DNA of 64,000 nt from Puffinus mauretanicus (Eukaryota > Chordata > Aves > Procellariiformes > Procellariidae). The position numbers were made by a program, and so were the translations under genes. The stretch lies in NCBI GenBank assembly GCA_023333565.1, contig JAJKFH010000756.1, forward strand, positions 1 through 64,000, in the 5' to 3' direction. Numbering within the stretch: the first letter of the stretch is position 1; every line of letters begins with the position of its first letter. This document shows positions 19,274 to 48,531 of the stretch, in pieces. The notes beneath the pieces were generated by a model. That model worked only from the letters and a program-made list of their open reading frames with translations. It was not told the DNA's origin and did no database searches.

Positions 19274-20207
19274 TTAATGATGCTGAGAAACAGCTGATTG
19301 AATCAGCTGCTTCAATGTGTCTTTAAGCTCCTTGTTCCTCATGCTGTAGATAAGGGGGTTCATTGCTGGAGGCACCACTGAGTCCAGAACTGCCACCACC
19401 AGATCCAGGGATAGGGAGGAAATGGAGGGAGGCTTCAGGTAGGCAAACGTGCCAGTGCTGATAAACAGGGAGACCACAGCCAGGTGAAGGAGGCACGTGG
19501 AGAAGGCTTTGTGCCAGCCCTGCTCAGAGGGGATCCTCAGCACGGCCCTGAAGATCTGCACATAGGACAGCACGATGAAAACAAAACACCCAAATTCTAC
19601 ACAGATACTAACCACAATGACCCAAACTTCCCTGAGGTAGGCATCTGAGCAGGAGAGCTTGAGGATGTGGGGGATTTCAGAGAAGAACTGGTCCCCAGCA
19701 TTGCCTTGGCAGAGTGGTATGGAAAAGGTATTGGCAGTGTGTCCCACAGAAGTGAGTAAACCACCACCCCAGGCAGCTGCTGCCATGTGGACACAAGCTC
19801 TGCTGCCCAGGAGGGTCCCGTAGTGCAGGGGTTTGCAGATGGTAACGTAGCAGTCATAGGCCATGATGGTGACAAGATAAAACTGCTGTAGCACCGAAAA
19901 AGAAGAAAAAGACCTGTGCAGCACATCCCTAGTAGGAGATGGCCCTGGTGTCCCACAGGGAATTGGCCATGGATTTGGGAACAGTGGTAGAGATGGAGCC
20001 CAGGTCGAGGAGGGAGAGGTTGAGGAAGAAGAAGTACATGGGGGTGTGCAGGCGGTGATCACAGGCTACGGCGGTGATGATGAGGCCATTGCCCAGGAGG
20101 GCAGCCAGGTAGATGCCCAGGAATATCCAGAAGTGCAAGAGCTGCAGCTCCCGGGTGTCCGTGAATGCCAGGAGGAGGAACTGGGTGATAGAGCTGCCAT
20201 TGGACAT
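19274..20207 (-). pseudogene. Olfactory receptor pseudogene, OR14-like
   Basis: A single-exon seven-helix odorant receptor frame starts at the ATG at 20207 (MSNGSSITQFLLLAFTDTRE, with an N-terminal NGS sequon) and ends at the stop near 19274 after NPLIYSMRNKELKDTLKQL. Family hallmarks are present: GNGLIITA in helix 1, LHTPMYFF, MAYDCYVTICKPLHY in place of MAYDRY, KAFSTCLLHL, and NPLIYS in helix 7. It is dead. A TAG at 19929-19931 replaces a codon after RAISY, and a one-base shift in the T-rich run around 19890-19920 moves the rest to another frame. The DRY arginine is Cys, and the extracellular-loop-2 Cys of QFFCEIP is Ser. The OR14-like expansion is typical of birds, and the exact subfamily is inferred. 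Confidence 0.9.
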
Positions 20208-20294
20208 TTGCTGCCTCTGGGCATGGGTACCCGTGCAAGAAGGAGAAGTCATTGACAAGTTAGGGGAGACTTTTCTGAGCAAAACCAAAGCCAT

Positions 20295-22227
20295 TTCCTA
20301 CAGACCCTCCCCTTGCTATACACCCCACCCCCTCGTTTTCCTTTTCTAGAAGACCTTCCTTCAACTCCATGGCGGAAACTCTGGTTGCATGTGCCGTGAG
20401 GAGCAGGGCCTCTGCCCGCTGGCTGCCGAGGTGTCAGCCCTGCTCAGCAGCAGTGAGTTCATGGGAACGGTGGAAGCAGAGGCCAGTCCTGGTGTTCAGC
20501 TTTGTCAGATGAAACCACCCCTAACGCAGAAGGGCTTGTCAGCATCTGCACTCCCAGTGCTAAGGAACGAGGATTGCAGAAGGCAGACTGGAAGTTTTTC
20601 TAAAGAAAATTTCCCCCATCTTATTTGAGGATTGTTTTGCTGACCCTCAGCATTTCTGTTGCACTCAGAGAGAACAGAGTGTGTCCTGCAAGGCAAGAGG
20701 ATTGCCTCTGGATTAGCGCAGAGGGAGGGGAGCTGGTTTGTCCCTCACTCCGAGATGCCCTGGGCTTGCACCTTTCTGAGATTGAGGGCGATCACACTGC
20801 TATGTTTCCGAGAAAGCCAGCAGACACTGCTGAGAGCCGAGATCCACTGCAGACCACTAAACGTCTCACCCTTTCTCAACGTCTCAGCAACGCTCTTCTA
20901 GCCAAGGACACCCGTGGCTCATTTCACCAACCCAACAGCAGTTCCTTGGTCATAGCATCTCTGTGCTTGTACATGGGGCTTTCAGATAACACAAAGATGC
21001 TATGGGACAGATTTGCATTCTGGAGGACAGCTCACAGCTTGGAAGGATACCTCAAGGAGATACATAAGTTTTTTCATGATGGCATCTCACCAAGGGAAAA
21101 CCAGCTCATTCCCCAGCTGCACAGGCTGCATTGTCCACAGCCTCCCAGATGGGAGGAAAGCTGAGACACTTGTTCCCATGGACACACCTGCAGGAAAGGA
21201 CCCACAAGGTCCGGGTGTGCCTCTGCAGCTGAAACTCCCATCCCCAGAGAGCTTGGCAGCAAGAACGGGATGACGACAGCAAGAACGGGATGACAACAGC
21301 AAGAACGCAGATAAGCGGAGAAACAAGGAAACATGCAGCGAGGGTCTGGCTGAGAGAGGCCAGGGCAGAGGCAGCCGGGCACTCCGGGCAGCGCTACCCT
21401 TACCCAGCTGTGCAGCCACCTCCCAGACATCAACATTGCCGGGCAGCTCCTTGTGCTCTGCAGAGGGAACCGGGCACGTGGCTGGAGAGCTGCACCACAG
21501 CTCTGCTGGAGCTCTGGCTGCAGAGGAGGGGGTTCACTGAGGGCCTTGGACCCCACGGCCCTGAGGGCAGAGGCTTTGCTGGGTAGGAGAGGAGGCAAGG
21601 GGGCTTGCTCAGAGGAAGGGGTCTGCACTGTGGGGATGAGATGGAGTTTTCTGAATTCTCCCTCCCACAGCATTTCTGCTTTAGGTCTCCTCTCATTCCC
21701 TGATCGTAACACTGCTGCCTGGAGATTTTCCTCCTGGGAAGTGGTTCCCTGTGCCATGTCTCTTCCCTCTCAGCACTCACAGACCCCATCCCCAGCTCTG
21801 TGCACTCACCCTGGCCCTACAGAAACCTGCCTGTGTTCAGGGCACTGGCTGGGCACATGTTCCTCTTTGGAGGTGGAAAAGGGCAGGTCAGAACCACCCT
21901 GATGGGTGCAGCGAAGTTGATGCTGGTGCTGTCCATAGGCAGAGGAGTGGCTGAAGGCACTTTAGGAGGCTATCAACTGACCTACTGACCACTCAACGTT
22001 ACAGCTCAGGAGTCTCAAGGACTTGTCCAAACTTGAGAGGTCCTTTTCTATTTCTCTTTCCCTCCCCACCCCCACCCCTGCTCCTGTTCCCTGCCCTCAG
22101 AGTAGGAAACTGAAAACACAGACTCGGGAAATCTCTTTATACTAAACTCTGCCTTGACCTTCCTCTTGAAACATCCCCTTGGAAGTTTCCTAGTGATGTT
22201 CTGGAGCTGTGAGCAGCCCTGACCCAC
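20295..22227. other. No gene seen
   Basis: No family is recognised. A 179-codon plus-strand frame at 20625-21164 and a 227-codon minus-strand frame at 21074-21757 overlap and lack motifs. A small tandem repeat of an ACAGCAAGAACGGGATGAC unit, about three copies, lies at 21258-21310. Confidence 0.4.
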
Positions 22228-22729
22228 TGTCCTGGTTCTGGCTGGGACAAAGTTAACTTTCTTCCCAGTAGCTTGGGGGGTGGGCTGTGCTTTGGGTTTA
22301 GTGTGAAAGGAGTGTTGATGGCCCATTGATGCTTTGGCTGTTGCTGGGTGGTGCTTGCTCCAGGAGGGGGGAGCACAGGTGGGGTGGTGGACCCAGCTGG
22401 CCAACAGGGTATTCTACACCATGTGACATCATGCTCAGTATAAAAACCAGGTGTGGGGGGGGGCTCGCCCCCGTTCATGACACGCGGTCGGCGGTCGGTG
22501 AGCAGTTGCATTGTGCATCGCCTGCTTTGTGTATTCTGTTATTGTTGTTGTTCTCATTGTTATTATTACTGTTCTACTTCATTTTATTTCATTTATTAAA
22601 CTGTTTTTATCTCAACCCGGCAGCTTTCCTACTTGTGCCCTCCCAATTCTCTCCCCCATCCCACCGGGGGGGAGGTGATCGAGCGGCTGCGTGGCGTTTA
22701 TTTTTGCTGGCTGGGGTTAAACCACGACA
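22228..22729 (+). mobile_element. 5' LTR of ERVL-like provirus 1
   Basis: The 502-bp LTR begins TGTCCTGGTTCTGGCTGGG and ends GGTTAAACCACGACA. It contains a TATA-like CAGTATAAAAACC at about 22438 and a T-rich segment TTTATTAAACTGTTTTTATC. A candidate target duplication, CCCAC at 22223-22227, cannot be matched because the 3' side is disrupted. Confidence 0.9.
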
Positions 22730-22737
22730 GTCCTTTT

Positions 22738-22755
22738 TGGCGCCCAACGTGGGGC
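22738..22755 (+). other. Primer binding site, lysine-tRNA type
   Basis: TGGCGCCCAACGTGGGGC lies 8 nt after the LTR end. It matches the 18-nt PBS that betaretroviruses use for tRNA-Lys1,2 priming. Its presence directly confirms the LTR boundary. Confidence 0.8.
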
Positions 22756-22837
22756 AGCGAAGGGTTGAGATAACAACAGATTATTTAGAGCATATTAAGG
22801 AATTTATATCTGGTAACATATTAATTTGTTCTGCACC

Positions 22838-23779
22838 ATGCTGTTGTTTTTACTGTACCTGTTAAAAATTGGAGTTGGGTTTTGTAGTCTGTTGTGCTCT
22901 GCCGTGATTAATGATGTTTTGCCGGGGAGATTTGTTACTAAAACACTGGCATTGGGGGTTATTTGGTATTTGGGATTCGTAACGAAGCCGTTTCTGTATT
23001 TCAGATACCACCTCATGGAGACCATTAGCAATTATACCTTTTCCTCCGAGAGATTTTTTATGGAGGAAATAGAGAATGGCACCCTCGCTACCTTCCTCTA
23101 TGATGTCATCTCCTTTGTTAAAATAACGTGCCAGTACCTTGAACATCCCTGGGTAGTTAAGATACATCTATTGGTACTCCTTGGGAATATTGTTGTGGTT
23201 TCATCCAAGGTTAGTAAGCAATTCAAGAATGTCATCCAGAGATCTGCCCCAAGGCTGGATAGTTATGAGTGGCAGGGCAAGTGGGATAGCATGGGCAAAT
23301 GCCTAGGATGGTGGGCACCGCCAGTGTTCTGGAACTTTACCCCTGAACAAGTGCAGAACCCCGAAAAATTAGTAGAATATTTGGAAGAAGTATGCTGTCA
23401 CCCTGGCCATTCTAGGGAGACGCACATCACTACAATGTGCTGGGGCCTGGCCCACGCCTACCGAGCCCTGTTTAACACCACTCAGAACCCCCAAGGGGAA
23501 GGAAACGTCTCTGCAGCTGATGACAAAGCAACAGGCCCTGTGGCTACTCCACCCCCCACGGCAAGCACAGCGGCTCCCTCACCCCCCAGGGCAGGCACGG
23601 CAGCTACTCCGCCCCCTGCGACAGAGACCCAACCCACACCGGTATCAGTCATCCCTATACAAAAAAGAAAATGCACAAGAAAATCAGCTCGTTTAGTAAG
23701 GGATGAAAATGAACCAGGGCCATCACGAGAAAAGGAGGAGGAGGAGGCAGAACCCGTAAATGAGATGGTGACCACCTGA
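22838..23779 (+). pseudogene. Pre-gag membrane ORF of ERVL-like provirus 1 (possible Gag N-terminal extension)
   Basis: From the ATG at 22838 an open frame of about 313 codons runs to a TGA at 23777. Residues 1-60 are very hydrophobic with two or three likely membrane segments (MLLFLLYLLKIGVGFCSLL; LALGVIWYLGFVTKPFLYF). A segment with sequons NYT and NGT follows, then another hydrophobic stretch near residues 85-125, then a helical part with WNFTPEQVQNPEKLVEYLEE and AHAYRALFNTTQNP. It ends with a Pro/Thr/Ala-rich, then basic and acidic tail. It lies in the same reading frame as the gag segment that follows. A homologue in provirus 2 at 42216-42722 keeps the hydrophobic pattern and both sequons. 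The function is unknown; glyco-Gag of gammaretroviruses is an architectural analogy only. Confidence 0.6.
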
Positions 23780-24748
23780 TCCCTATCCCTGGGTGAGCTG
23801 TGAGATAGGCAAAAAGACTTCAGCCGTCGTCCAGGCGAGCACATTGTCACTTGGCTGCTCTGATGCTGGGATAACGGGGCCAGTAGCCTGGAATTAGAGG
23901 GTAGGGAAGCCAAGCAGCTGGGATCCCTTGCTAGGGAAGGGGGCATTGACAAAGCGATTGGACAAGGGGCACAAGTCCTCAGCCTCTGGAGGCGACTCCT
24001 GTCAGGTGTGAAGGAAAGGTATCCCTTCAAGGAAGATGTTATATGCCACCCAGGCAAGTGGACCACCATGGAGAGAGGTATCCAGTACCTGAGGGAATTA
24101 GCCGTGCTGGAGGTGATTTATGATGACCTGAACAACGAGCAGTTATCCAAAGACCCAGATGAAGTCAAATGCACCCAACCCATGTGGCGGAAGTTTGTAC
24201 GGAGCGCACCAGCGTCACATGCAAACTCATTGGCAATAATGACCTGGAGAGATGGAGAGGAACAAACAGTGGATGAACTGGCTGGCCAACTCCGGCAATA
24301 TGAAGAAAGTCTCTCTTCCTCCCTACGGGCCTGTGTCTCTGCTGTGGAGAAACTGTCTCAGGAGGTCCAGCAACTCAAAGAGGATATGTCCTGCTCCCCA
24401 CCTGCACGGGCCAGTGTCTCAGCCATTAGGAGCAAGCGTCCCTCTGCTCAAGAGGGGAGATATCGTGGGTACACACCCCGGGGCACCCTGTGCTTTTACC
24501 TGCGTGACCACGGAGAGGACATGAGGAAGTGGGATGGAAAAGCTACCTCATCCCTAGAGGCACGGGTACGTGAGTTGCAAGGAAAAACAACCACAAAAGG
24601 AGGTTCTTCCAGGAAAACTGCTGCTCCAGTCTCCAGTGAGCCGCTCCCCAGACAGAGTAGAAGGGCTAATTCCACTTCCGATCTTAACAAAGGGACTTCT
24701 GACTCATACTTACAAGAAGTGGATAGCGAATATGATGACCAGGACTAG
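23780..24748 (+). pseudogene. gag (capsid region) of ERVL-like provirus 1
   Basis: In frame with the pre-gag ORF, this region reads through TGA codons at 23777-23779, after GGTGAGCTG, and after TGGCTGCTC. It is then open from about 23876 to the TAG at 24746-24748. The capsid-like part includes YLRELAVLEVIYDDLN and FYLRDHGEDMRKWDGKA, the hallmark shared by ERVL Gag and the mouse Fv1 protein, followed by a basic Gly/Ser/Lys tail. No zinc knuckle is present, as in ERVL Gag. The stop codons look like CGA to TGA or similar point lesions, so the copy is inactive but only lightly decayed. Confidence 0.8.
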
Positions 24749-25765
24749 AGGGGCCCTGCCTCCAGCCAGGTGGAGGAAAGGGACAACCGGGTTTACTGGA
24801 CTGTGTGGATTCGATGGCCTGGCACACCAGAGCCACAGGAATATAAGGCTCTTGTAGACACCGGTGCACGGTGTACCCTGATGCCATCAAACTATAAAGG
24901 GGCAGAACCCACCTGTATTTCTGGAGTGGCAGGGGGATCCCAAGAGTTAACTGTGTTGGAGGCCAAAGTGAGCCTAACCGGGAATGAGTGGCAGAAGCAC
25001 CCCATTGTGACTGGCCCAGAGGCTCCGTGCATCCTTGGCATAGACTACCTCAGGAGAGGGTCTTTCGAGGACCCAAAAGGGTACTGGTGGGCTTTTGGCA
25101 TAGATGCCCTGGAGATGGAGGAAATTAAACAGCTGTCCACCTTGCCCGATCTCTCAGAGGATCCTTCTGTTGTGGGGTTGTTGAAGGTCCAAGAACAGCA
25201 GGTACCAATCGCTACCACAACAGTGCACCGGCGGCAATACCGCACCAACCGAGACTCTCTGATTCCCATCCATGAGCTGATTCGTCGACTGAAGAGCCAA
25301 GGAGTGATCAGCAAGACTCGCTCACCCTTCAACAGTCCCATATGGCCAGTGCGAAAGTCCAATGGAGAGTGGAGACTTACAGTAGACTATCGTGGTCTGA
25401 ACGAAGTCACGCCGCCACTGAGTGCTGCCGTGCCGGACATGCTAGAACTCCCATAGGAACTGGAGTCAAAGGCAGCCAAGTGGTACGCCACAACTGACAT
25501 TGCTAATGCCTTCTTCTCAATCCCTTTGGCGGCAGAGTGCAGGCCACAGTTTGCTTTCACTTGGAGGGGCGTCCAGTACACCTGGAACCGACTGCCCCAG
25601 GGGTGGAAACACAGCCCTACCATTTGCCATGGACTGATCCACACCGCACTGGAACAGGGTGAGGCTCCAGAACACCTGCAATACATTGATGACATCATTG
25701 TATGGGGCAGCACATTAGAAGAAGTTTTTGAGAAAGGGGAGAGAATAGTCCAAATCCTTCTATTC
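24749..25765 (+). pseudogene. pro-pol (protease and partial RT) of ERVL-like provirus 1
   Basis: This continues in the gag frame after the stop. The aspartic protease is marked by ALVDTGARCTLMPSN. RT follows with SPIWPVRKSNGEWRLTVDYR, then a TAG within the ELP-ELESKAAKW junction near 25456, then WNRLPQGWKHSPTICHG and the active site QYIDDIIVWG. Homology stops in the thumb at about 25765, where the sequence turns into a 20-bp tandem repeat. RNase H, integrase and any env are absent. The set places the element in class III, ERVL-like, by motif. Confidence 0.85.
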
Positions 25766-25769
25766 CTTG

Positions 25770-25969
25770 GGCTCTGGTTTTGTTCCCCAGGCTCTTATTT
25801 TGTTCCCCGGGCTCTGATTTTGTTCCCCGGGCTCTGGTTTTGTTCCCCGAGCTCTGGTTTTCTCCCGCGGGCTGTGGTTTTCTCCCGAGGGCCCTGGTTT
25901 TGTTCCGCGGGCTCTGGTTTTGTTCCACGGGCTCTGGTTTTCTCCCGCGGGCTCTGGTTTTCTCCCACA
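25770..25969. repeat. Tandem repeat, 20 bp x 10
   Basis: The unit GGCTCTGGTTTTGTTCCCCG is repeated ten times head to tail with one to four changes per copy. It starts exactly where provirus 1 RT homology ends and runs into the C-rich minisatellite. Because 20 is not a multiple of 3, three units make a 60-bp, 20-residue period. Both strands stay open across it, which fuses spurious peptide to the RT frame. Confidence 0.95.
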
Positions 25970-27169
25970 CCCAGACATGCCCAGCGCCCAACACACCAGA
26001 ACGCAGCAAACCAGCCCCCAAGAACCCCAGTGATCAGCACATAGCACCTGGACATGCCCAGCACCCGGAGCGCTCAGCACCCCTAACGCCCACCATCCAG
26101 CACCCCCACAGGTCTCACACCCAGCACGCCCAGTGCCCGGAAACCAGCATACCCAACACTCAGCATCCAGCACCCCCAGCCCCCAGCACCCAGTGCCCAG
26201 CACGCTGCACTTAGACATGGCCAGCACCCGGACATGCTCAGCACCCAGCAACACAGGGGCACAGAACCCAGCACCCCCAGCGCCCAGAAACCAACCATCC
26301 CAGCGTCCAGCACTCAGTACACCCAGGGCCCAGCAACCAACACCCACACATGCCCAGCACCCCCACCACCCAGCACAGGGACATGCCCAGCACCCAGCAC
26401 ACACAAAGACCATCACCCCCAGCACCAAGCACCCAGCACCACCTGGACATGCCCAGCACCCAGCACCACCACCACCAGCGCACAGTACCCAGCACCCGGA
26501 CATGCCCAGCACTCAGACATTCCTAGAAGGCAGCTTCCCTGCTCCCCATTGCCCAGGACCTCCAGTGCCCATCACCCACCACCCAGACATGCCCAGGGCC
26601 CAGCACCCACACTGCCCAACAACCAGCACCCACACATACCCAGCACAACCAGGGCCCAGCACACAGCACACGCACGTGCCAGGAATCCAGCATCCCCAGA
26701 GCACAGCACCCAGCCACCCCAGAGCACGCACCCAGCACCAGATATGGCCAGCACCAAGACATACCCTGCACTCAGTTATGCATAGTACCGAGCAATGCCA
26801 GGGCCCAGCATCCACAGTACCTAGCACCCAGCACTCCCACCACTCAACACCCACCATCTGGACATGCCCAGTACCCGCACTGCCCGTGCCCAGCACCCAG
26901 ACGTGCCCAGCACCAAACATGCCCAGCGCCCGACACACCAGATAGCAGCAAACCAGCCCCCAACACCCCCAGTGATCAGCACATAGCACCCGCACATGCC
27001 TAACACCCAGCACCGGCAGTGCCAGGAAACCAGTATACCCAACACCCAGCATCCAGTACCACCACCACCCAGCACCCCAACTGCCCAGTACCAGCATGCG
27101 GACATGCCCAGCACCCGAACATACACAGTACCCCTAGGACCCAGCACTCAGAACTCCAGCGCACTGCAC
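25970..27169. repeat. C-rich minisatellite with higher-order structure
   Basis: About 1.2 kb built from variants of CCCAGCACC, ACATGCCCAGCACC and similar 9-26 bp motifs. The plus strand is almost free of G runs and the minus strand is rich in GGGTGCTGGG. A larger unit recurs: 25970-26175 and 26910-27070 share an ordered block (AGCAAACCAGCCCCCAA, CAGTGATCAGCACATAGCAC, GGAAACCAGCATACCCAACA). Long open frames on both strands come from the stop-poor unit and are not genes. Confidence 0.9.
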
Positions 27170-27615
27170 TGTCCTGCTTCCGGCTGGGACAGAGTTAACT
27201 TTCTTCCCAGTAGCTTGGGGGGTGGGCTGGCTTTTGGGTTTGGTGTGAGAGGAGCCTTGATGGCCTCTTAATGCTTTGGGTGTTGCTGGGCGGTGCTTGC
27301 ACCGGGGAGACTTTTGTTCTCTCTTTTCGGCCTCCCACAGGAAGCTCAGAGTGGGAGCACAGCCGGGGTGTTTGACCCAGCTGGCCAATGGGGTATTCTA
27401 TAGCATGTGACATCGTGCTCAGTATAAAAAATGGGGGGGGTGGAGGGGGCCTCCTGCCCCCGTTCATGACACGCGGTCGGCAGCAGTGAGCAGTTGCATT
27501 GTGCATTGCCTGCTTTGTATTGTCTGTTGTTGTTGTTGTTCTCATTGTTATTATTACTGTTCTACTTCGTTTTATTTCAATCATTAAACTGTTTTTATCT
27601 CAACCCGGGAGTTCT
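27170..27615 (+). mobile_element. ERVL-like LTR, 3' truncated, within the minisatellite
   Basis: It starts TGTCCTGCTTCCGGCTGGG and follows the LTR at 22228 closely through TTTATCTCAACCCGGGAG, then breaks off and minisatellite resumes at about 27620. No polypurine tract precedes it. It is either the 3' LTR of provirus 1 separated from pol by repeat expansion, or an independent insertion. Confidence 0.85.
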
Positions 27616-27619
27616 CCTG

Positions 27620-27790
27620 GACAGCAGGAACATGCCATGGACATGCCCACCACCCAGCAGCCCCAGAGCCCAGCACGCAGCACCCAGCACCAGGACATAA
27701 CCAGAAGCCAGTCCCCGCAGTGTCCACCACCCAGTACCCCCACCACTCAGCAACGGAACATGCCCAGCACCAAGCACCACCAGTGTGTAG
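27620..27790. repeat. Minisatellite continuation after the LTR
   Basis: The CCCAGCACCCAGCACCAGGA-type units resume immediately inside the LTR's U5-equivalent and fade near 27790. Confidence 0.85.
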
Positions 27791-28251
27791 CAAGGGGTGC
27801 TAGGTGTGGTGGATATGGCACATTTGGGGTGCTGGAGGTGGCTGGGTGCTGGGCAGCTGAGAAGGGTCTATCAAGGCAAGGTGAGAGCCGCCAACATCTT
27901 TCAGTCCTGCCTATTTGTGTATGGCAGCCCGAAGTGGTGCTCGACTGCTTTGCAGTTGGGCTCTGGTAAGGTTGCTGGTTGGATGGTAGAGCAAGAGCAG
28001 CTCCCTCTGAAAGGGCTGCCACGAAAGGCAAGAGCCAGAAACAGCTTTCAGTGCTGGTTCTTTCTGTGTTGGAGTGCCACCTGGTGGGAAGCCGTTTAGG
28101 AAATGGGCTCGAGAGATGGTAAGGCAAAGGTTGATATTTAGGTTTGAGAATAGGGGAGGGGGCCGGTGTTATCGGGACTGGGAAGGGGCTACTCCTCTTT
28201 TAGAGCCCAATGTGGTGCGTGGCGTTATGTAACGCAGAAGGGTCTCATTAT
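27791..28251. other. No gene seen
   Basis: This is mixed sequence with a short G-rich reverse-type stretch (GGTGCTGGAGGTGGCTGGGT at 27818-27850) and no open frame of interest. Confidence 0.4.
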
Positions 28252-28612
28252 CTACGCAGAACCTCAACCTATCCCTTACCCTCATCAGAGCCAAGCTCCA
28301 AAGCGGGCACCCACCTCATGGGGCTCAGGCACAGAAAAAGCCAGGACTCAAGGTTGATGCTGGCCCTCAAATTGCCTTGGCAGCCCCATTAACTCGCGGC
28401 CTCGGTGTCTCTTCTCCCACCTAACCTCGACCTATCACTTATCCGCCTCAGAGCCAAGCTCCGAAGTGGCCACCGACCTCATGGGGCTTAGGGACTGAGG
28501 TAGCCGGGAATCAAGGTTGATGCTGGCACTCACCTTCCCTTGGCAGCCCCTTCTCAGCCCCACCAACACCGGGGCTCTGTGTCTCTTCTCCCACCTAACC
28601 TTGGCATGACTG
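28252..28612. repeat. Tandem duplication of about 175 bp
   Basis: Two head-to-tail copies share CCAAGCTCC(A/G)AAG, CACCTCATGGGGCTCAGG-type sequence, CAAGGTTGATGCTGGC, CTTGGCAGCCCC and GTGTCTCTTCTCCCACCTAA. The first runs about 28252-28430 and the second about 28431-28612. No coding signature is visible. Confidence 0.8.
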
Positions 28613-28614
28613 TT

Positions 28615-29097
28615 GGCATGCAGGTCCTGGGTGGTGGGGGTGCTGGAAGCTGGGTGTTGGGTATGCTGGTTCCTGCCACTGCGGGTGCTGGGTGTGAGAC
28701 TTGTGGGTGTGCTGGATGGTGGGTGTTTGGTGTGCACCCTCAGTCTGGAGGACACTCAGAACCCCAAGTGCCGAGCACACAGCATCCAGACGTGCCCAGC
28801 ACCTGCACACACCCAGCACCCACAAGACCCAACAACCAGCACCTGGTCATGACCAGCAACTGGAAATGCCCACAGCCAGCACCCCTAGCCAGCCCGCACC
28901 CAGCACTCCCAGGGCCCAGCACTAATTCCCGGACATGCGCACAACCCAGCACACCCACCGCCAACACACAGCATCGAGACATGCCCAGCACCCAGCAGCC
29001 CCAGTGCCCAGCATCCACCAGCAAGACATACCCTGCACCCAATTATGCATGGTACCCAGCACTCCCAGGGCCCAGCAACCAGTAGCCCCAGTACCTC
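28615..29097. repeat. Minisatellite with an inverted block
   Basis: 28615-28740 is G-rich (GGTGGGGGTGCTGGAAGCTG and following). It is the reverse complement of the ordered block at 26085-26175, including the antisense of CAGGTCTCACACCCAGCA and CATACCCAACA. From about 28745 to 29097 the array flips back to the C-rich orientation. Confidence 0.85.
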
Positions 29098-29624
29098 GGC
29101 TCGCTTCTGTAATCCTACACAATGAAGACTTGTGGCTTAGAAGTTAGGTAACTAGCAGGTGTGGTGTTTGCAGGTGTGTAGAATTGTAGTCGAAATCGGG
29201 TCTCCTGGAAGCAGTGTTAGACTCTAGTGAAGAGTAACCTTGGAAACGAGAACCGTAAACAAACGTGGTCCAGACGCGGCTCAGAGACAAACCTCGACCT
29301 TACAAGGAAAGAAAGGAACAGGTTCACAAAGAGTTCACTACCCCGCCGACCACCCGAGACCACCCGAGACCCTAAAGGTTTTAGTGCGCATGTGTCTAGG
29401 ATGATGTAATATTATAATCGGCTCTCGGAAATTTAAGGAATATGTAAAAGAGAAACTGAAAATATGTATGAGAAGCATGGATACAAACAGAAAGGTGATT
29501 AGGACCTGGTGTGTGTTTCTATTGTGGTGTTCACCCTAATCCAGGCCTGAATAAAACAATCTCTCTCCTGAGAGTGTGGAATTGCTTAACTGCACGCCGG
29601 GCACGAATCTGCTTTTCGGACGAC
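29098..29624 (+). mobile_element. 5' LTR of gammaretrovirus-like provirus (5' truncated)
   Basis: This matches the LTR at 34188 onward from GCTCGCTTCTGTAAT. It carries AATAAA at 29550-29555 and ends CGGACGACA at 29624. About 30 bp at its start, present in the 3' LTR (TGATGCAATAGG...), has been replaced by minisatellite. Confidence 0.85.
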
Positions 29625-29630
29625 AGTTTT

Positions 29631-29648
29631 TGGTGACCCAGGTGGGAC
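29631..29648 (+). other. Putative primer binding site, TGGTGACCC type
   Basis: TGGTGACCCAGGTGGGAC lies 6 nt after the LTR end. Its first nine bases equal the start of the tRNA-Trp-type PBS of avian retroviruses, and the rest does not match well. Position and TGG start support a PBS; the tRNA identity is uncertain. Confidence 0.5.
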
Positions 29649-29949
29649 AGCTGTGAAGCCTTGCCCGGATCGACTCGCCGGCTCTCGGTGGGGAGACCCT
29701 GCTCTCCGGACTCCAGCGCACACCGACCTTTTGATCGGGGACTCTGTGAGGATTCTCCCCGACCAGAGCAGGTGAGCGACTCAACAGTGCAACGCTAAGG
29801 TAAAAGAGATATTGTGCTGGGGTATAAAATTGTGCATGCATTTGGTAAGGAATTGTGGCCAAAGGTAAAAAGGTTTATTCATATGTGTTTGACAGTGACG
29901 ACTGGAGTATATGAAATCATGGTTAAGAACATTCTTTTTGGACAAAAAT

Positions 29950-31030
29950 ATGGGAACTCAATAGTCTAAAGTAACACCTTGCTCTCCCCTTGGATGCATC
30001 ATAAAATATTGGGGACAATTTGGGGGAGATCCTTTGAGAAAGGAGAAAGTAATTGAGTCTTGTACTAAATGGTGGCCAATGTATAAATTAGAAGATGAGG
30101 AAAAATGGCCAGAATTGGCAACTCTGCAATATAATACTACCTTGCAAGTGATGTTATTTTGTAGACGATAGGGCAAATGGGATGAGGACTTGTTCTTTAC
30201 CTTGAGAAATGATCATGAGATTCGGAAGAAATGTAAACTTTTAGACTCAGATTCTAATGTGATGATGATGATGATGGAGGACAAGGAACCAAAACCGCAT
30301 TGTTCTTCTGCTTGTAGTCTAGGAAAACGGTGTTTAAAACTAGGAGAAGAGGAAGATGGTACACAGATGTTGGTGGCACTGAGGAAAAATGAAAGTTTTG
30401 AACCTGAAGCAAGGGGAAGTAACACATTTAGTCCAATAGCTGGCAGAACTGGGACCCAAGAGGGGTCTGTTTTATTAGCACCCCTTCCTCAGGCTGTGGG
30501 CCTAAGGGGGGGACCAGTGTTTGTGAAAATACCTTTTACTACCTCTGATTTGATGAATTGGAAAGAATTGGCAGGATCATATAGGGAAAATCCTGAAAAG
30601 GTGTATAGATCTTTAAAGACAATTACTAAAAATCATAATCCAGATTGGCAAGATATTCAAATCGTTTTAAATAATTTGTTAACTCCTGAAGAAAAGAGGG
30701 TCGTATTGGAAAAAAACTAATATGGAAAATGAAAGAAAAAAAGGGAAAACAGAAAGCTGCAATTCTTGCAGCTGCTTTTGTGAATGCCCAAGGATCTGCT
30801 GGAGGTAGGGGCAGAGGATTTTGGAGAGGTAAAAGCAAAGGGTACTTAAGAGGCAGAGGTCGAGGATGTGGAAATATATTTGAACAGTCTACTCCGTTAG
30901 GGATCAATCAATGCGCTGTATGTTAGAAGCAAGGACCCTGGAAAAATGAGCGTGCAGAGAAGAAGAAAGTTGCTGTGATTCGGCCACAACAAATTCCACC
31001 TGAAGCTGATCTCCTTATGATGGGAGAGGA
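29950..31030 (+). pseudogene. gag of gammaretrovirus-like provirus
   Basis: The gag start ATGGGAACTCAA at 29950 keeps the Met-Gly myristoylation context but has TAG at codon 5. The same frame continues with matrix-like LGCIIKYWGQFGGDP and WPMYKLEDEEKWPE, another TAG near 30168, then a capsid start VFVKIPFTTSDLMNWKELAG. A stop at 30718 and a frame change lead into a basic Gly/Arg nucleocapsid part (GGRGRGFWRGKSKGYLRGRG) and a broken zinc knuckle, QCAVC followed by a stop. Much of the capsid C-terminal domain is deleted. Confidence 0.8.
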
Positions 31031-33590
31031 TTCTGAAGGATGGGGACTGGGGCAGAAAATGATATTCTCCCAGCCGAGCCCCTGGTTCCAGTAAAGCTGG
31101 GAAATAAAAGAGTCGAGTTTTTAGTGGACACTGGTGCAAAATATTCTGTTATAAATACATGTAAAGGACCAATGAGTAAATTTAATGTATCTGTTATTGG
31201 GGTCACGGGAAAGAAAGAGGTAAGGTCTTTTTTGTGAAAACTGTAAACTGTCAAATCGGAGGAAGAACATTGATGCATGAATTTTCATATATACCGGAAT
31301 GCACCATGCCTCTCTTAAGACGGGATTTATTGAATAAATTGGGAGCACAAATTAACTTTGAAAAAGGAAAAATCCATTTTTCTTGGATCCAAACAAAAGG
31401 AAAAGTTCATTTTCCTGAAGCTAATGCCTGGCAAGCCCAAGTTTATTTCTTACAGACAAACACAGAAGAATCTGAAGAAATCAGTTTACCCTTCTGTTTG
31501 GGCAACAGCCAAACCAGGAAGAGCAAACAATGTGGAACCGGTAAAAGTTGAATTGAAAACAGGAGTTCGACCACTCTGGAAGAAAACAGTCAACAGATTT
31601 TTGCCTTTGAATGGGAAGATCTGTCGACTGGGAGGAGAACTCAGCTCTGCTGGACTGTGCTGCCACGAGGGTTTAAAAATAGCCCAACCATCTTTGGAGC
31701 AGCCTTGACCAAGGAACTGGAACACTGGTCCGGTAAGGAAGATCAAATCACCCTCCTTCAGTGTGTTGATGACATCCTATTGGGAGCAGATGCTCTTGAG
31801 ATCTGCAAAGAAAAGACTGTCAGCCTCCTAAACTTTTTGGGAATGGCTGGGTACAGGCTGTCAGAAAAGAAAGCACCAATTGCAAAACAAACTGTAATTT
31901 ATTTGGGATTTGAGATTTCCCAAGGACAACCAAGACTGGGAAATGATAGAAAAAAAAGGCCATCTGCAAGGTGGCACCCCCTCAATCTACAATATCAAGC
32001 TCTGTTAGTGGAACAAGATGACATCATTTTGAAGTAAGTGCCATTTTAAATCCTGCTTCTTCAATGCCAAGTGAAAAAGAGAGTGATCCTAATCATGATT
32101 GTTTACAAGTTATCAAACAGGTATATGCCAGCAGGCCAGACCTGAGAGATGTCCCTCTCCAGACTCCGGATGAAGAATTATTTACCGATGGAAGCAGCTT
32201 TGTTGTGAAAGGAGAAAGGAGGGCTGGCTATGCCGCGGTAACTTTAACCGAAGATCAAGAAGTAAAAGCATTACCTCCAAATACATCCGCCCAGAAGGCA
32301 AAGATAACAACTTGGACAAGAGCTTTAGATCTGGCTAAAGGTAAAAGAGTTACTATTTAGACGGACTCTAAATATGCTTTTGGAGTTGTTCGTGCCCATG
32401 GAGCGATATGGAAAGAGCGAGAACTTTTGTCTGTCAGTGGCTCACCTATAAGGTATGGAACAGAGATTTTAAATTTACTGGAAGCAGTAGGAAAAAAAAC
32501 CAAAAACAAAAAAAAAAAAACCCAAAGAAGTTGCTGTGCATCAAAAGAAATTCAAATAGAATCCCCAAATGATAACAAAAAAGAAAATAAGTTGGCTAAG
32601 CTATTACAATGCAAAAAGAATGATCAAGGATGATGGGTTATTTCACATGGACAATGTATAGTAACTCCCAAAATCATGAAGAAATTGATGGTCACAACCC
32701 ATGCTGAGACACATAAGGGAGCAGAAGCAATGGTCGAGTCGGTAAAACAATATGCAAAATAGGGACTAAAATGTTATTGATTGCTAAAAGTGTGAGTAAT
32801 AAATGTGAGATTTGTCTTAGGAACAATTCGAAAATACAAATCTGACCCCCCCCTGGAGAGGTCAGGAAAGGCGTAACTCCCGGGGAGTATTGGCAAAGAG
32901 ATTTTTCAGAGTTACCAAGGTGCAACCAATCCCGATATTTATTGGTATTGGGAAATACCTTCTCTGGATGGCCAAAAGCTTTCCCGTGGCAAACCAACAA
33001 GGCAAAAGAGGTAACAAAACACTTATGGAAAGAAATTATTTCAAGATTTGGAGTCCCTTTAGAGATGTCCTCTGATAGAGGCCCACATTTTGTAGCAGAG
33101 GTTATTAAGAATGTGAGTAAGACACTAAAAATCAAGTGGGATTTACATACCTCTTGGAGACCACAGTCTAGTGGGAGAGGTAGAAAAAATGAACCAAACA
33201 TTAAGGAGACAAATTTCTAAAATATGTCAAGAAGCTCAGTTGAAATGGATTGAAGCTTTACCACTTGCCTCGTTAAGAATTAGGATGACCCCTAGAGCTA
33301 GAGAAAAAAAAAGTCCATTTGAAATTCTGTATGGTAAACCTTACAATGTCAATATAACAGGAACGTCTGAACAAATGCACATAATAGGAGAAAAAGTGAT
33401 AACTGAGTATCTCATGTCCTTGAGTGAAATGTTGAGCTCTTTACACAGACATGTTCTTTTGAGAACACCTTTATCCCTTGAATTTCTGGTACATTCATTC
33501 AGCCCAGGAGACCAAGTCTACCTGCTAATGTGGATGGACGACCCCTTGGGGAATGGGGGAAAGGACCCTTCCAAGTGTTATTAACAACAA
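31031..33590 (+). pseudogene. pro-pol of gammaretrovirus-like provirus
   Basis: The protease has the FLVDTGAKYSVI active site at about 31118-31150. Most RT finger and palm sequence is missing; what remains includes LPRGFKNSPTIFGAALTKEL and the active-site motif LQCVDDILLG, with Cys in place of Tyr. RNase H keeps ELFTDGSSFV near 32170. Integrase survives as fragments with FGVPLEMSSDRGPHFVAEV near 33040 and a C-terminal part ending near 33590. Frames shift repeatedly and many stops intervene, so the copy cannot be active. Confidence 0.85.
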
Positions 33591-42127: not shown

Positions 42128-42157
42128 TGTACTGCTTTTGGCCGGGACAGAGTTAAC
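42128..42157 (+). mobile_element. Stub of the 5' LTR of provirus 2
   Basis: Only about 30 bp of LTR (TGTACTGCTTTTGGCCGGG, then ACAGAGTTAAC) remain. They are joined directly to the leader sequence AACAACAGAT that in provirus 1 lies at 22769 onward. The rest of the LTR and the primer site are deleted, with AAC shared at the junction. Confidence 0.85.
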
Positions 42158-42215: not shown

Positions 42216-42722
42216 TTGCTCGTCGTGATATTGACTTACCTGTTCTTGACGTTAGTTTATCTGATCTGTGCTGTGCTCCCTTTTTTGTGGTACATGTTAA
42301 AGGCTGGTCTTGCCTTTTGCAGTTTGCTGTGCTCTGTAGCGCTTGGTGGTGTTTTGTCTGGGAGATGTATTGTAAAAGCACTGGCCTTGAGTTTCATCTG
42401 GTATTTGAGCTCCGCACTGATGCCATTAGTCTGCTTTGGGAATCATCTCATGGAGACAATTAGCAATCACACTTTTTCCTTTTTCTCCTCCAAGAGATTT
42501 TCCGTGGAGGACACACAGAACGGCACCTTCACCACCTTCTTCTGTGTGGCAGATGTTTTCTCCCTTGTTACAATAACTCTTCAGTATCATGAACATCCTT
42601 GGGTAACCAAAATACTCCTATTGGTTCTTCTCAAGAATATTTTTTCAGCTTTTTCTAAGGTTAACCAACTACGTAGGAATATCACCCACGGATATGTCCC
42701 AAGGCAGTGTGGTTATGGGTGA
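42216..42722 (+). pseudogene. Pre-gag membrane ORF of provirus 2
   Basis: The 169-codon open frame is homologous to 22838-23270 of provirus 1. It keeps the hydrophobic blocks (FCSLLCSVALGGVLSGR; LALSFIWYLSSALMPLVCF), HLMETISNHTFSF with its sequon, and an NGT sequon before TTFF. The provirus 1 ATG corresponds to GTG here; the nearest ATG in frame is at the MLKAGLAFCS position. A TGA at 42720 ends the frame, after which homology to the WNFTPEQV and AHAYRAL region continues, broken, to about 42915. Confidence 0.6.
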
Positions 42723-43059: not shown

Positions 43060-44002
43060 GGTCAACTTGTGAGATATGCAAAACGATTTCAGGCGTCATC
43101 CAGGAGAGCAAATTATCAGCTGGTTGCTCTGATGCTGGGATATTGGGGCCAATAGTCAGGAATTAGAGGGTAAGGAAGGCCAGCAGCTGGGATCCCTTGC
43201 TAGGGATAAGGCCATTGACAAAGGGATTGGAAAAGGGGCAGCAGTCCTCAGTCTCTGGAGGTGACTCCTGTCAAGGGTGAAGGAAAGGTATCCCTTCAAG
43301 GGAGATCTTGCAAATTCCCAAACAAGTGGCCCACCTTTGAGGGAGGTATCCAGTATCTGAGGGAATTAGCTGTGGTGGAGGTGATTGACAGCAACCTCGA
43401 GAACAACCAGGCATCCAAAGACCCAGATGAAATCCAGCGTACACAGTCCATGTGGCCAAAGTTTGTACGAAGTGCACCAACATCATATGCCAACACCCTG
43501 GTGATAATGAGCTGGACAGGCGCGGAGGCACCAGCTGTGGATGGATTGGCCAGCCAACTCCAGGAATTGAAAGAGAATCTCACTTCCTCCCTACAGGCCT
43601 GCCTCTCAGCTGCGGAGAAACTGTCCCAACAATTGTGCCAGCATTTAAAAAAGGATGTATTCCTCTCTCATACCGACCAACATCTCAGCTATTAAGAGTC
43701 AGCCTTTTTCTGCTCAAGGGAAAGGGTACCGGTGGCACACACCACGTGCCACCCTGTGGTTCTGTCTGCATGACCAGGGGGAGGACATGAGGAAGTGGGA
43801 TGGTGAACCCACCTGCAGACTAGAAGCTCAGGTACAGGAACTGCAAGAAAAAACAACTGCTCAAAGGCATCCATCCAGGAAAACTACTGCTCCAGTTTCT
43901 GTTGGGCAGAGTAGAAGGGCTGATCTTACTCTTGACCCTGATGAAGGGACTTCTGGTTTGCAGTTACAAAAACCAAGTGATGAATGTGCTGACCAGGAAT
44001 AA
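43060..44002 (+). pseudogene. gag of provirus 2
   Basis: This is homologous to 23800-24748. It reads FRRHPGEQIISWLL, then YLRELAVVEVIDSNLEN, then a frame change near 43690, then LWFCLHDQGEDMRKWDGEP and a basic tail ending at a TAA at 44000. The stop occupies the same position as the TAG that ends gag in provirus 1, and is followed by the same AGGGGCCCTG. Confidence 0.8.
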
Positions 44003-45801: not shown

Positions 45802-47205
45802 ACGTGCTTTACACCACAGCCAAGGACCACGGCCCCACCTGGAAAGAAAGAAGCGCCTGGAGAGACTCGAGGACGACCTCCAGGGTTTGGAGATGGGGTT
45901 ATAGAGGATCTGAGGCCCACTACACTCCAACAGAAAAAGAAATATTAGCAGCCAATGAAGGGCTTCGAGCCACTTCAGAAGTAGTTGGTACTGAAGCACA
46001 GCTCCTCTTGGCACCTCAATTGCCTGTGCTGGGATGGATGTTCAAATTGAGGGTACCCTCCATACATCATGTAACTGATGAGTGGAGTAAACGGGTTATG
46101 CTGATAACGCAACGGGCTTGAACGGGAAACCCTGACCGCCCGGGAATCCTGGAAGTGATCATGGACTGGCCAGAAGGCCAAAACTTTGGAGTGTTGCCAG
46201 AGGAGGTGACTCGTGCTGAAGAGGCCCCACTAGGTAATAAATTACCAGAAAGAGAGAAGCAATATGCCCTGTTCACTCATGGGTCCTGTCATATTGTGGG
46301 AAAACATGGGAGGTGGAAAGCTCCTGCGTGGAGTCCTATACAACAAGTTGCAGAAACTGTTGAAGGAGAAGGTGAATCGAGTCAGTGTGCAGAGGTGAAA
46401 ACCATCCGGCTGGTTTTAGAGAAAAATGGCCAGTCCTTTATCTCTATACTGACTCACGGATGGTGGCAAATGCTCTGTGGGGGTGGCCACAGCAATGGAA
46501 GCAGACCAACTGGCAGCGCAGAGGCAAACCCATCTGGGCTGCTGAACTGTGGCAAGATATTGCTGCCTGCGTGGAGAACCTGGTTGTAAAAGTATGTCAC
46601 ATAAATCCTCACGTACCCAAGAGTCGTGCCACTGAAGAACATCGAAACAACGAGCAAGTGGACCAGGCTGCTAGAATTGAAGCGGCTCAGGTGGATCTGG
46701 ACTGGGAGCATAAGGGTGAGCAATTTATAGCTCGGTGGGTCCATGACACATCAGGACATCCAGGAAGGGATGCACCATACAAATGGGCTTGTGATCGAGG
46801 GGTGGACATGACCATTGATGCCATTGCACAGGTTATCCATGAATGTAAAACGTGTGTCGTAATCAAACACGCCAAGCAGCTAAAGCCTTTTTGGTATAGA
46901 GGACGATGGCTGAAATATCAGTATGGGGAAGCCTGGCAGACTGATTACATCACGCTACCACAAACCCGCCACAGCAAGCACCATGTGCTTACAAAGGTGG
47001 AAGTGACTACCGGATGGTTGGAAACATACCCTGTGACCCACACCACTGCCTGGAATACTATCATCTTGGGCCTTGAAAAGCAAGTTCTATGGTGGCGCAG
47101 CACCCCTGAAAGAATTGAATCAGACAACAGGACTCATTTCCAAAACAACCTCATAAACACCTGGGCCAAGGAGCATGGCATTGAGTGGTTGTGTCGCATC
47201 AAGCC
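45802..47205 (+). pseudogene. pol part 2 of provirus 2 (RNase H, integrase N-terminal and core)
   Basis: This resumes with GCTTTACACCACAGCC. RNase H is recognisable (YLYTDSRMVANALWGWPQQW). Integrase has the HH-CC region (ARWVHDTSGHPGRDAPYKWA, then HECKTCVVIKHAK), the first catalytic Asp in WQTDYITLPQ and the second in ERIESDNRTHFQNN (the usual Gly is Arg). The 846-nt open frame from about 46385 is long, but pol breaks off at GIEWLCRI where a CR1 is inserted. Confidence 0.85.
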
Positions 47206-48531
47206 ATTGTGCAGCGGGGTAGCTATGACTTAGTCGCCATCATGGAAACATGGTGGGATGAGTCTCATGACTGGAGTGCTGCAATGGATGGCTATAAGCT
47301 CTTCAGAAGGGACAGGCGAGGAAGGAGAGGTGGTGGGGTAGCCCTGTATGTCAGGGAGTGCTTCGACTGTCTAGAGCTCAATGGTAGTGATGACGAGGTC
47401 GAGTGCTTGTGGGTAAGGATGAGGGGGAAGGCCAACAAGGCAGATATCCTGCTGGGAGTCTGTTATAGACCACCTAGCCAGGACGAGGAGGCAGACGAAA
47501 TATTCTACAAGAGGCTGGCAGAAGTCTCCCAGTCGCTAGCCCTTGTTCTCGTGGGGGACTTCAACTTTCCGGGCGTCTGCTGGCAATACCACACGGCAGA
47601 GAGGAACCAGTTGAGGAGGTTCCTGGAGTTTGTGGAAGATAACTTCCTGACGCAGCTGGTAAGTGAGCCCACCAGGGGAGGTGCCTCGCTTGACCTGCTC
47701 TTCACAAACAGAGAAGGACTGGTGGGAGATGTGGTGGTTGGAGGCCGGCTTGGGCTTAGCGACCATGAAATGGTAGAATTCTCGATACTTGGTGAAGTAA
47801 AGAGAGGGGCCAGCAAAACGGCTACCATGGACTTCCGGAGGGCGGACTTTGGCCTGCTCGAGAGGGTCCCTTGGGAGACAGTCCTGAAGGGCAAAGGGGT
47901 CCAGGAAGGCTGGACGTTCTTCAAGAAGGAAGTCTTAAAGGCGCAGGAGCGGGCTGTCCCCATGTGCCGTAAGAAGAACGGGCGGGGAAGACGACCGGCC
48001 TGGCTGAACGCGGAGCTCTGGCTGGGACTCAGGAAAAAAAGGAGAGTTTATCACTTGTGGAAGAAGGGGCAGTCAACTCAAGAAGAGTACAGGGATCTCG
48101 TTGGGTCATACAGAGAGGAAATTAGAAAGGCAAAAGCCCGGCTAGGACTCAACCTGGCCACTGTCATGAGAGACAACAAAAATGCTTTTACAAGGAGAGC
48201 CAAGGAGAATCTCCATCCTCTATTGGATGCGGTGGGGAACGTTGCCACCAAGGACGAGGATAAGGCTGAGGTACTCAACGCCTTCTTTGCCTCAGACTTT
48301 AATAGTCAGAGCAGTTATCCTCAGGGTACTCAGCCCCCTGAGCGGGAAGACAAGGACGACGAGCAGGATAAACCCCCCATAATCCAAAAGGAAGAAGTTA
48401 ATGACCTGCTACGCCACCTGGATGTTCACAAGTCTATGGGGCCGGATGGGATCCACCCGAGGGTACTGAGGGAGCTGGCGGAGGACCTTGCCGAGCCGCT
48501 CTCTCCATCATTTACCAGCAGTCCTGCTTAA
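47206..48531 (+). pseudogene. CR1 ORF2, endonuclease and RT N-terminal part
   Basis: An open frame of more than 430 codons encodes the apurinic-type endonuclease: VALYVRECFDC, LLGVCYRPPSQDEEADE, VLVGDFNFPGVCWQYH and a SDHEMVEFSI catalytic His region, then a linker, then KSMGPDGIHPRVLRELAEDL at the RT entrance. The frame ends early at TAA 48529-48531 because one base is missing in CTCTCCATCATTTACC near 48505. The domain is otherwise uninterrupted, but the 5' part of the endonuclease is absent, so the copy cannot be mobile. Confidence 0.9.

What the first reader, a model, noticed from the sequence alone, without database searches (positions are those of the whole stretch)
22838..23779. Conserved membrane ORF in front of gag in two diverged ERVL-like proviruses
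Provirus 1 (22838-23779) and provirus 2 (42216-42722) both begin their internal region with a long hydrophobic ORF that keeps the same transmembrane pattern and the same two sequons. In the HLMETISNxTF stretch (23009 onward) most codon differences are synonymous (CAC/CAT, ACC/ACA, ACC/ACT), as expected under purifying selection while the element was active. In provirus 1 it is in frame with gag. Classical ERVL has no such product. It may be a glyco-Gag-like extension or an independent accessory protein.
Basis: partly seen in the sequence, partly recalled or inferred. Interest (0 to 1): 0.75.

Follow-up and report, generated by a model that had tools for sequence, protein, structure and literature searches.

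The report
Membrane-anchored Gag in bird endogenous retroviruses
The odd hydrophobic reading frame is the front end of the capsid (Gag) protein of a widespread, envelope-lacking family of bird endogenous retroviruses, and it probably inserts that protein into cell membranes as it is made, much as mouse IAP elements send their Gag to the endoplasmic reticulum.

Summary
In detail: a hydrophobic ORF opens the internal region of both proviruses, at 52% protein identity, with two shared sequons and dN/dS 0.35 (bootstrap 0.22-0.61). It is not a separate accessory gene but the N-terminal domain of one Gag polyprotein. In the window's own genome, 58 of 150 copies scored with the membrane region and 82 of 150 scored with the capsid region have an open frame of 630 codons or more, most of 641-642. 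Six long bird-type proteins (628-688 residues) listed from short metagenome or ENA contigs have the same layout. In 40 copies chosen by capsid, so without bias for this domain, changes shared by copies are mostly synonymous (4N:8S) and single-copy changes look near-neutral (72N:27S; p = 0.009). One sequon is kept in 30 of 32 divergent bird rows. Loop charges favour that loop in the lumen and Gag in the cytosol. No env fits between integrase and LTR in 4 of 4 loci read. Best reading: an obligatory polytopic membrane anchor that sends an Env-less, ERVL-like Gag to the secretory pathway for assembly. Insertion, glycosylation and particles are inferred, not shown. Searches of a partial paper library found no description.

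The parts
22225..22630 (+). 5' LTR (part that aligns to 27167-27618)
   Evidence: 88.6% identity to the downstream LTR, 46 mismatches in 405 aligned sites; repeat families D14, D15, D19
22738..22755 (+). primer-binding site
   Evidence: exact 18-nt match, the only one in the window with up to 2 mismatches, 0.01 expected; its naming as the tRNA-Lys-1,2 type is recalled
22838..23239 (+). membrane domain of Gag, residues 1-134, with several hydrophobic segments
   Evidence: hydropathy peaks at residues 2-20, 37-55 and 105-123 plus a weak one at 83-101; helices in the AF2 model, mean pLDDT 63; dN/dS 0.35
23030..23038 (+). deeply conserved sequon NYT, Asn-65, in the loop before the last hydrophobic helix
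   Evidence: 30 of 32 bird rows; 48 of 48 own-genome copies and 36 of 38
23075..23083 (+). second sequon NGT, Asn-80, subfamily only
   Evidence: 4 of 22 rows; 48 of 48 own-genome copies; not measurable (0 of 0)
23240..23485 (+). matrix-like helical domain of Gag, residues 135-216
23486..23776 (+). proline/alanine/threonine-rich linker of Gag; in-frame stop follows at 23777-23779
   Evidence: variable in length among relatives
23780..24748 (+). capsid and C-terminal part of Gag, same frame, broken in this copy by in-frame stops; ends at TAG 24746-24748
   Evidence: translation; stop context; capsid identity 0.68 among 8 relatives
24749..25755 (+). protease and first part of reverse transcriptase, same frame after the gag stop; rest of pol missing here
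   Evidence: RVP match E 0.0023, just under the curated cut-off; translation
27167..27618 (+). downstream LTR, possibly of another copy
   Evidence: K2P 0.124 to the 5' LTR
42216..42719 (+). membrane domain of the second, more diverged element (no ATG at this start)
   Evidence: 52% identity to the first; the other 149 rows of its own-genome search are 52-70% identical
43261..43695 (+). capsid fragment of the second element
   Evidence: 43317-43616 is 77% identical to 24049-24348
46385..47230 (+). RNase H and integrase of the second element
   Evidence: Pfam rve E 3.7e-10, RNase_H E 1.6e-9

Best explanation
The ORF is the N-terminal domain of the single Gag polyprotein of an Env-less, ERVL-like family of bird endogenous retroviruses. 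SHOWN: one continuous frame of about 635 codons carries the membrane domain, a matrix-like helical domain, a proline-rich linker, capsid and tail; the membrane domain was under purifying selection while copies multiplied; one sequon sits at a fixed place in nearly all relatives examined; the four downstream regions read have no room for env. INFERRED: the first hydrophobic segment acts as a signal-anchor, so Gag is made on the ER; the chain crosses the membrane so that the sequon-bearing loop is lumenal (and N-glycosylated) and the rest of Gag is cytosolic, as the loop charges suggest (positive, negative, positive); this replaces the N-terminal myristate of other retroviruses and makes capsids assemble on secretory membranes, giving an intracellular cycle like that of mouse IAP elements.
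For: One frame: 16 of 48 copies open for 600 codons or more from the same ATG, modal lengths 634 and 635; 17 of the 35 copies that have the ATG in a separately chosen set of 40; 58 of 150 and 82 of 150 listed copies with open frames of 630 or more (tallied); 30 of 209 sequences with both domains, including six long proteins listed from jgi or ena contigs (P0122-P0125, P0130, P0138). Selection: pairwise dN/dS 0.35; shared 4N:8S versus single-copy 72N:27S, p = 0.009; capsid in the reverse design 10N:14S versus 96N:40S, p = 0.009. Topology: mean net charge over 32 rows +1.7 (residues 35-45), -3.0 (73-126) and +2.5 (148-170) in P0123 numbering; sequon 30 of 32. In 8 of 8 full-length relatives no glycine at position 2, no CCHC finger, no PTAP/PSAP and no YPxnL; PPxY in 1 of 8. 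Env-less: in 4 of 4 downstream loci integrase ends at 3209-3237 and the LTR starts at 3657-3690, with no forward open frame of 60 codons or more lying wholly between. Precedents: IAP Env loss plus an ER-targeting signal (PMC4643047 passage); MuERV-L particles in the ER (PMC5930517 passage).
Against: The number of membrane crossings is not settled. At a hydropathy cut-off of 1.2, 22 of 22 rows have 2 to 5 segments; at 1.4, ten long relatives have only 1 to 3 within the membrane domain, the last helix of P0138 falls below it, and in 4 of 10 a stretch in the matrix-like part passes it, so the measure is not specific. Per-row net charge after the last segment, counted to residue 200, runs from 0 (the window ORF among them) to +6. 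The AF2 models are of low confidence (mean pLDDT 63 and 53). Two of 32 rows lack the sequon (P0137, P0141) and so does P0073, so glycosylation cannot be essential in every lineage. The membrane domain diverges faster than capsid (0.36 against 0.68 identity). An internal Met at the start of the matrix-like domain is common (27 of 31 rows, counted), so a shorter Gag is possible. No expression, localisation or particle data exist here.
Confidence: 0.7

Rival explanations
1. Dual-start, true glyco-Gag arrangement: the long membrane form is a minor, glycosylated accessory, and a shorter cytosolic Gag starting at the internal Met (MGKCLG, residue 152 of the window ORF) builds the capsids.
For: Met at that column in 27 of 31 rows, Met-Gly in 25 of 31 (counted); many annotated relatives begin there.
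Against: The Met is missing in P0120, P0130, P0131 and P0138, which are otherwise long Gags; the residue after Met is Ser in two rows; the Met lies inside a predicted helix. In the window copy no other ATG lies between the primer-binding site and the start of the membrane domain.
Confidence: 0.14
2. The membrane domain is a fusion or entry device (FAST-like, as in insect MDG1-group sORF2) that lets an Env-less element pass between cells, perhaps after cleavage from capsid.
For: Hydrophobic segment followed by a basic patch, upstream of capsid, in an Env-less element: features described for sORF2 (PMC11952523 sections 7, 8, 11). Mean net charge +2.5 after the last helix.
Against: sORF2 is a separate ORF of about 70 aa with one central transmembrane segment; here the domain is about 134 aa, has several hydrophobic segments and is fused to Gag. 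No sequence or fold link was found, though those tests are weak.
Confidence: 0.1
3. An independent accessory membrane protein that is only by chance in frame with gag in provirus 1.
For: In provirus 1 itself a stop separates it from the rest of Gag.
Against: Open frames through both parts in many copies and in 30 of 209 sequences.
Confidence: 0.02
4. A chance hydrophobic ORF or annotation artefact without selection.
For: Hydrophobic frames arise easily in T-rich DNA; 1 of 5000 shuffles kept the second frame open.
Against: 0 of 5000 shuffles for the first; purifying selection on shared changes; 142 homologues, with a position-specific sequon.
Confidence: 0.01

Closest known systems
TguERVL2_I / TguERVL2_I_Ucy, songbird ERVL families (PMC6523648, section 13 read)
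   Same: Bird ERVL, recently active; [quoted passage not shown] 6.4 kb, with no claim of an intact env. The authors already saw something odd in the gag ORF, a 137-aa weak similarity to a herpesvirus glycoprotein C.
   Different: The paper has no occurrence of 'transmembrane', and the section read describes no membrane domain or sequon. I had no sequence of TguERVL2 to compare, so identity of lineage is untested; the glycoprotein C similarity may rest on the proline/alanine/threonine-rich linker (my guess).
Mouse IAP elements with ER-targeted Gag
   Same: Env loss plus an ER-targeting signal, active retrotransposon; Env-less elements generally reach higher copy numbers (PMC4643047 passages). 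That the signal sits at the N-terminus of Gag is recalled.
   Different: IAP descends from a betaretrovirus (recalled); here the element is ERVL-like, and the domain has several hydrophobic segments with a conserved sequon.
MuERV-L (mouse ERVL)
   Same: Env-deficient ERVL; its particles accumulate in the ER (PMC5930517 passage).
   Different: The words transmembrane, signal peptide and myristoyl do not occur in that paper; no sequence comparison was made here.
Gammaretroviral glyco-Gag (gPr80gag of MLV)
   Same: Membrane-inserted, glycosylated form of Gag with an N-terminal addition (PMC3423011 passages).
   Different: There an upstream CUG adds 88 residues to a form made beside the AUG-initiated Gag, with type II topology; here the domain is built into the main frame and is polytopic by prediction.
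XtERV-S, frog ERVL-like provirus (PMC8278194 passages)
   Same: ERVL-type gag and pol in one frame separated by a stop; Gag without a myristoylation signal.
   Different: Gag has polybasic regions instead, and the element has an env.
Foamy virus Env leader peptide (PMC7828637 passages)
   Same: A membrane-inserted leader of about 120-130 aa in a virus whose Gag has no myristoylation signal.
   Different: It is part of Env and has type II topology.
Insect MDG1-group sORF2 (PMC11952523, abstract and sections 7, 8 and 11 read)
   Same: Small membrane product encoded before gag in an Env-less LTR retrotransposon, with a basic patch after the membrane segment.
   Different: Separate ORF, one membrane segment, FAST-like.

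Membership tests
ERVL / class III endogenous retroviruses | Reverse transcriptase groups with ERVL | not tested
   No reference RT set or tree was made; one relative carries the automatic name 'Friend virus susceptibility protein 1-like' (P0204), which only points that way.
ERVL / class III endogenous retroviruses | No env gene | tested here: met
   4 of 4 downstream loci of the family: about 450 nt between the end of integrase and the LTR, no open frame of 60 codons or more wholly within it. Not tested in the window's own two elements, which are truncated or interrupted.
ERVL / class III endogenous retroviruses | dUTPase at the end of pol (recalled for mammalian ERVL) | tested here: inconclusive
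   No dUTPase match at E 0.01 in 3 pol ORFs from 2 loci.
Gammaretroviral glyco-Gag | N-terminal extension from a non-AUG codon upstream of the normal gag AUG | tested here: not met
   The membrane domain starts at an ATG in 48 of 48 copies picked by it and 35 of 40 picked by capsid (the other 5 lack or have a diverged 5' part); it is the first ATG after the primer-binding site in the window copy.
Gammaretroviral glyco-Gag | Second, shorter Gag product made in parallel | tested here: inconclusive
   Internal Met in 27 of 31 rows, absent in four (counted).
Gammaretroviral glyco-Gag | Membrane insertion and N-glycosylation | not testable with these tools
   Only hydropathy, loop charge and sequon conservation are available.
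IAP-type ER-targeted Gag | Env-less element whose Gag carries an ER-targeting hydrophobic signal | tested here: inconclusive
   Sequence features fit; targeting itself is not shown.
FAST / sORF2 fusogens | Small separate ORF with one transmembrane segment | tested here: not met
   Fused to Gag; 2 to 5 hydrophobic segments in 22 of 22 rows.
Myristoylated orthoretroviral Gag | Glycine at position 2 | tested here: not met
   0 of 8 full-length relatives have it.

The most novel reading that the evidence does not exclude
A retroviral Gag that carries its own polytopic, glycosylated surface domain, so that Env-less capsids wrapped in membrane display that domain and use it to pass between germ and somatic cells: a capsid protein and a minimal envelope in one polypeptide, kept across ducks, storks, ibises and hawks.
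Probability: 0.08. Interest if true: 0.9.

Novelty: new variant of a known kind. Interest (0 to 1): 0.6.

Why it matters
How Env-less retroviruses become successful genome parasites is an open question; the mouse IAP case suggests that losing Env and gaining an ER-targeting signal is enough. A large bird family with a membrane domain built into Gag would be an independent solution, and can be tested with a fragment of about 134 residues. It also offers an identity for many bird proteins now called 'hypothetical' or 'uncharacterized', and raises the question whether matching Gag-like proteins listed under host names such as 'ubiquitin carboxyl-terminal hydrolase 4' are misnamed or fused to host genes.

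Tried and rejected

Pooled pN/pS over copies is biased by how copies were picked: 0.28 for membrane when picked by membrane, 0.09 for capsid when picked by capsid; so I relied on the region not used for picking. There the single-copy ratio was 0.76 (membrane) and 0.73 (capsid), and the shared ratio 0.14 and 0.22. In the membrane-picked set the membrane domain itself gave shared 9N:9S and single-copy 13N:28S, the opposite trend, which I put down to picking by that protein. The bootstrap range printed for capsid used a subset of copies and does not contain the point value, so I do not use it. In the capsid-picked set the matrix-like and proline-rich parts alone gave no significant contrast (p = 0.35 and 0.22), nor did the tail in the other set (p = 0.13). 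Between the two window copies the proline-rich part gave dN/dS 1.68 on 34 codons, uninformative. In the 40-copy set, 5 copies lacked or had a diverged 5' part, and in 7 of the other 35 the frame ended within the membrane domain.

Paper searches for a prior description; the library holds only part of the literature. Papers seen as abstract and three sections: PMC11952523; one section and passages: PMC6523648; passages only: PMC8278194, PMC5930517, PMC3423011, PMC4643047, PMC7828637, PMC2329609; the rest only as search listings.

Full report
WHAT IS THERE. The ORF at 22838-23779 is real: ATG start, 313 codons, with LTR, primer-binding site and leader before it. Its counterpart at 42216-42722 is open but starts with TTG. 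The proteins are 52% identical over 145 residues. Dinucleotide shuffles leave such frames open in 0 and 1 of 5000 cases. Between the two copies, dN/dS is 0.35 for the membrane part (0.22-0.61), 0.51 for the next part (0.27-0.95), 0.47 for capsid plus tail (0.33-0.64) and 0.22 for RT (0.12-0.40); the other two frames of the membrane part give 0.63 and 0.87.

IT IS THE FRONT OF GAG. The first protein search returned 142 relatives; those with a species name among the 120 listed are birds. A second, profile search scored the 7994 best candidates and returned 437, of which 120 were listed, again birds where named. Of the 209 sequences then in hand (207 proteins plus the two window ORFs), 30 contain both the membrane domain and the capsid start by local BLAST. 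Six long ones (P0122-P0125, P0130, P0138; 628-688 residues) are listed from jgi or ena contigs of 2 to 84 kb, so an intron in a gene model is an unlikely cause; P0121 (620) is an NCBI gene model. The order is membrane domain, a helical domain of about 80 residues, a proline/alanine/threonine-rich linker, capsid, tail.

THE OWN GENOME SETTLES IT. The window lies in a 1.21-Gb assembly. A search with residues 1-161 gave 1862 first-look candidates, of which 150 were scored; those are 93% or more identical to the window copy, and 58 of the 150 have an open frame of 630 codons or more. A search with part of the capsid gave 1917 candidates, of which 150 were scored; 82 of the 150 have such a frame. 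Of 48 loci read in the first set (the window copy, seven that the search brought in, and 40 that I picked at about every third row of the list), 48 have the ATG, 45 are open to at least 160 codons and 16 are open for 600 codons or more, mostly 634 or 635. Of 40 picked from the capsid list, 35 have the ATG, 28 of those have the membrane domain open to 134 codons or more and 17 are open for 600 or more. I name no copy as intact.

SELECTION. In a family that copies itself, changes seen in several copies mostly arose in active parents, and changes seen once mostly arose after insertion. In the capsid-picked set, the membrane domain shows 4 nonsynonymous and 8 synonymous shared changes (three copies or more) against 72 and 27 single-copy changes (Fisher p = 0.009; ratios 0.14 and 0.76). 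The reverse design gives the same for capsid: 10:14 against 96:40, p = 0.009. So the membrane domain was constrained much as the capsid was, and decays after insertion. The counts are small, shared changes are not independent of relatedness, and the membrane-picked set cannot be used for this domain (shared 9:9, single-copy 13:28).

SHAPE AND TOPOLOGY. At a hydropathy cut-off of 1.2, 22 of 22 N-terminal rows have 2 to 5 hydrophobic segments; at 1.4, ten long relatives have 1 to 3 within this domain, and the measure also picks a stretch in the matrix-like part of 4 of the 10. Averaged over 32 rows, the net charge is +1.0 in the first 34 residues, +1.7 in residues 35-45, -3.0 in the long loop with the sequon and +2.5 after the last helix, which by the positive-inside rule (recalled) puts the sequon loop in the lumen and the rest of Gag in the cytosol; single rows scatter, from 0 to +6 after the last segment when counted to residue 200. 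The sequon column is N-x-S/T in 30 of 32 rows (P0137 and P0141 have Asp) and in 21 of 22 in an earlier overlapping set (P0073 is the exception and was not in the larger set). I chose the rows for having the N-terminal part. At residue frequencies of 0.035 for Asn and 0.15 for Ser plus Thr, a sequon at one fixed column is rare in unrelated sequences; the rows are related, so this shows retention, not independent origin. AF2 models are of low confidence and support no fold claim.

THE REST OF THE ELEMENT. The primer-binding site matches an 18-nt pattern exactly once in the window; it is the tRNA-Lys-1,2 type by recall. Gag ends with TAG and pol continues in the same frame. Of the pol ORFs scanned, the long one of one downstream locus matches RT, RNase H and integrase, a short one of the same locus matches nothing, and that of a second locus matches integrase. 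In 4 of 4 downstream loci integrase ends at 3209-3237 and the LTR begins at 3657-3690, with no forward open frame of 60 codons or more wholly between, so there is no room for env. No glycine-2, CCHC finger, PTAP/PSAP or YPxnL motif is present in 8 of 8 full-length relatives; PPxY is present in one.

HOW IT MOST LIKELY WORKS. Gag begins with a signal-anchor, is made on the ER, threads a glycosylated loop into the lumen and keeps matrix-like, capsid and tail parts in the cytosol. Capsids then form on secretory membranes, and the element completes an intracellular cycle without Env. Shown: the frame, its conservation, the fixed sequon, the charges, the missing env. Inferred: insertion, glycosylation, place of assembly. 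The precedent is the mouse IAP element (PMC4643047 passages), and MuERV-L, an ERVL, also accumulates particles in the ER (PMC5930517 passage).

WHAT IS KNOWN. The nearest description found is of songbird TguERVL2_I_Ucy: two long ORFs in one frame and an unexplained weak similarity of the gag ORF to herpesvirus glycoprotein C (PMC6523648, section 13); the word 'transmembrane' does not occur in that paper. None of the paper searches listed a title or abstract about a membrane domain in bird ERVL Gag, but I read only eight papers, in part, and the library is partial. I rate this a new variant of a known kind: a membrane-targeted Gag of an Env-less ERV, with an unusual built-in polytopic domain.

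Noticed in passing
22225-27618: The two LTRs assigned to provirus 1 differ by 11% (K2P 0.124) while its gag is only about 4% different from sister copies in the genome; the downstream LTR may belong to another insertion.
   Followed up: partly
25738-29100: Long stretch of short G+C-rich repeats (CACCCAGCACC-like, plus 20-nt units at 25738-25997) replaces the rest of pol and surrounds the downstream LTR.
   Followed up: no
42130-42160: In the second element the start of an LTR-like sequence seems, by eye, to join the internal leader directly, as if most of the 5' LTR had been deleted.
   Followed up: no
47185-49886: Two long ORFs with endonuclease- and reverse-transcriptase-like text (CR1/LINE-like by eye) interrupt the second element.
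   Followed up: no
29099-34630: Another pair of direct repeats (95% and 92% identical blocks about 5.1 kb apart) with retroviral-looking ORFs between: a third, different provirus.
   Followed up: no
19274-20294 (minus strand): Olfactory-receptor-like reading frame (by eye) split into two overlapping ORFs.
   Followed up: no
own genome G000: Certain shortened Gag frames recur among copies (292, 184, 405/406 codons), as if copies with a split Gag had multiplied with help from others.
   Followed up: no
listing: Many bird proteins named 'ubiquitin carboxyl-terminal hydrolase 4' match this Gag; some also carry that enzyme's Pfam domains: misnaming, or fusions of gene models or genes.
   Followed up: no
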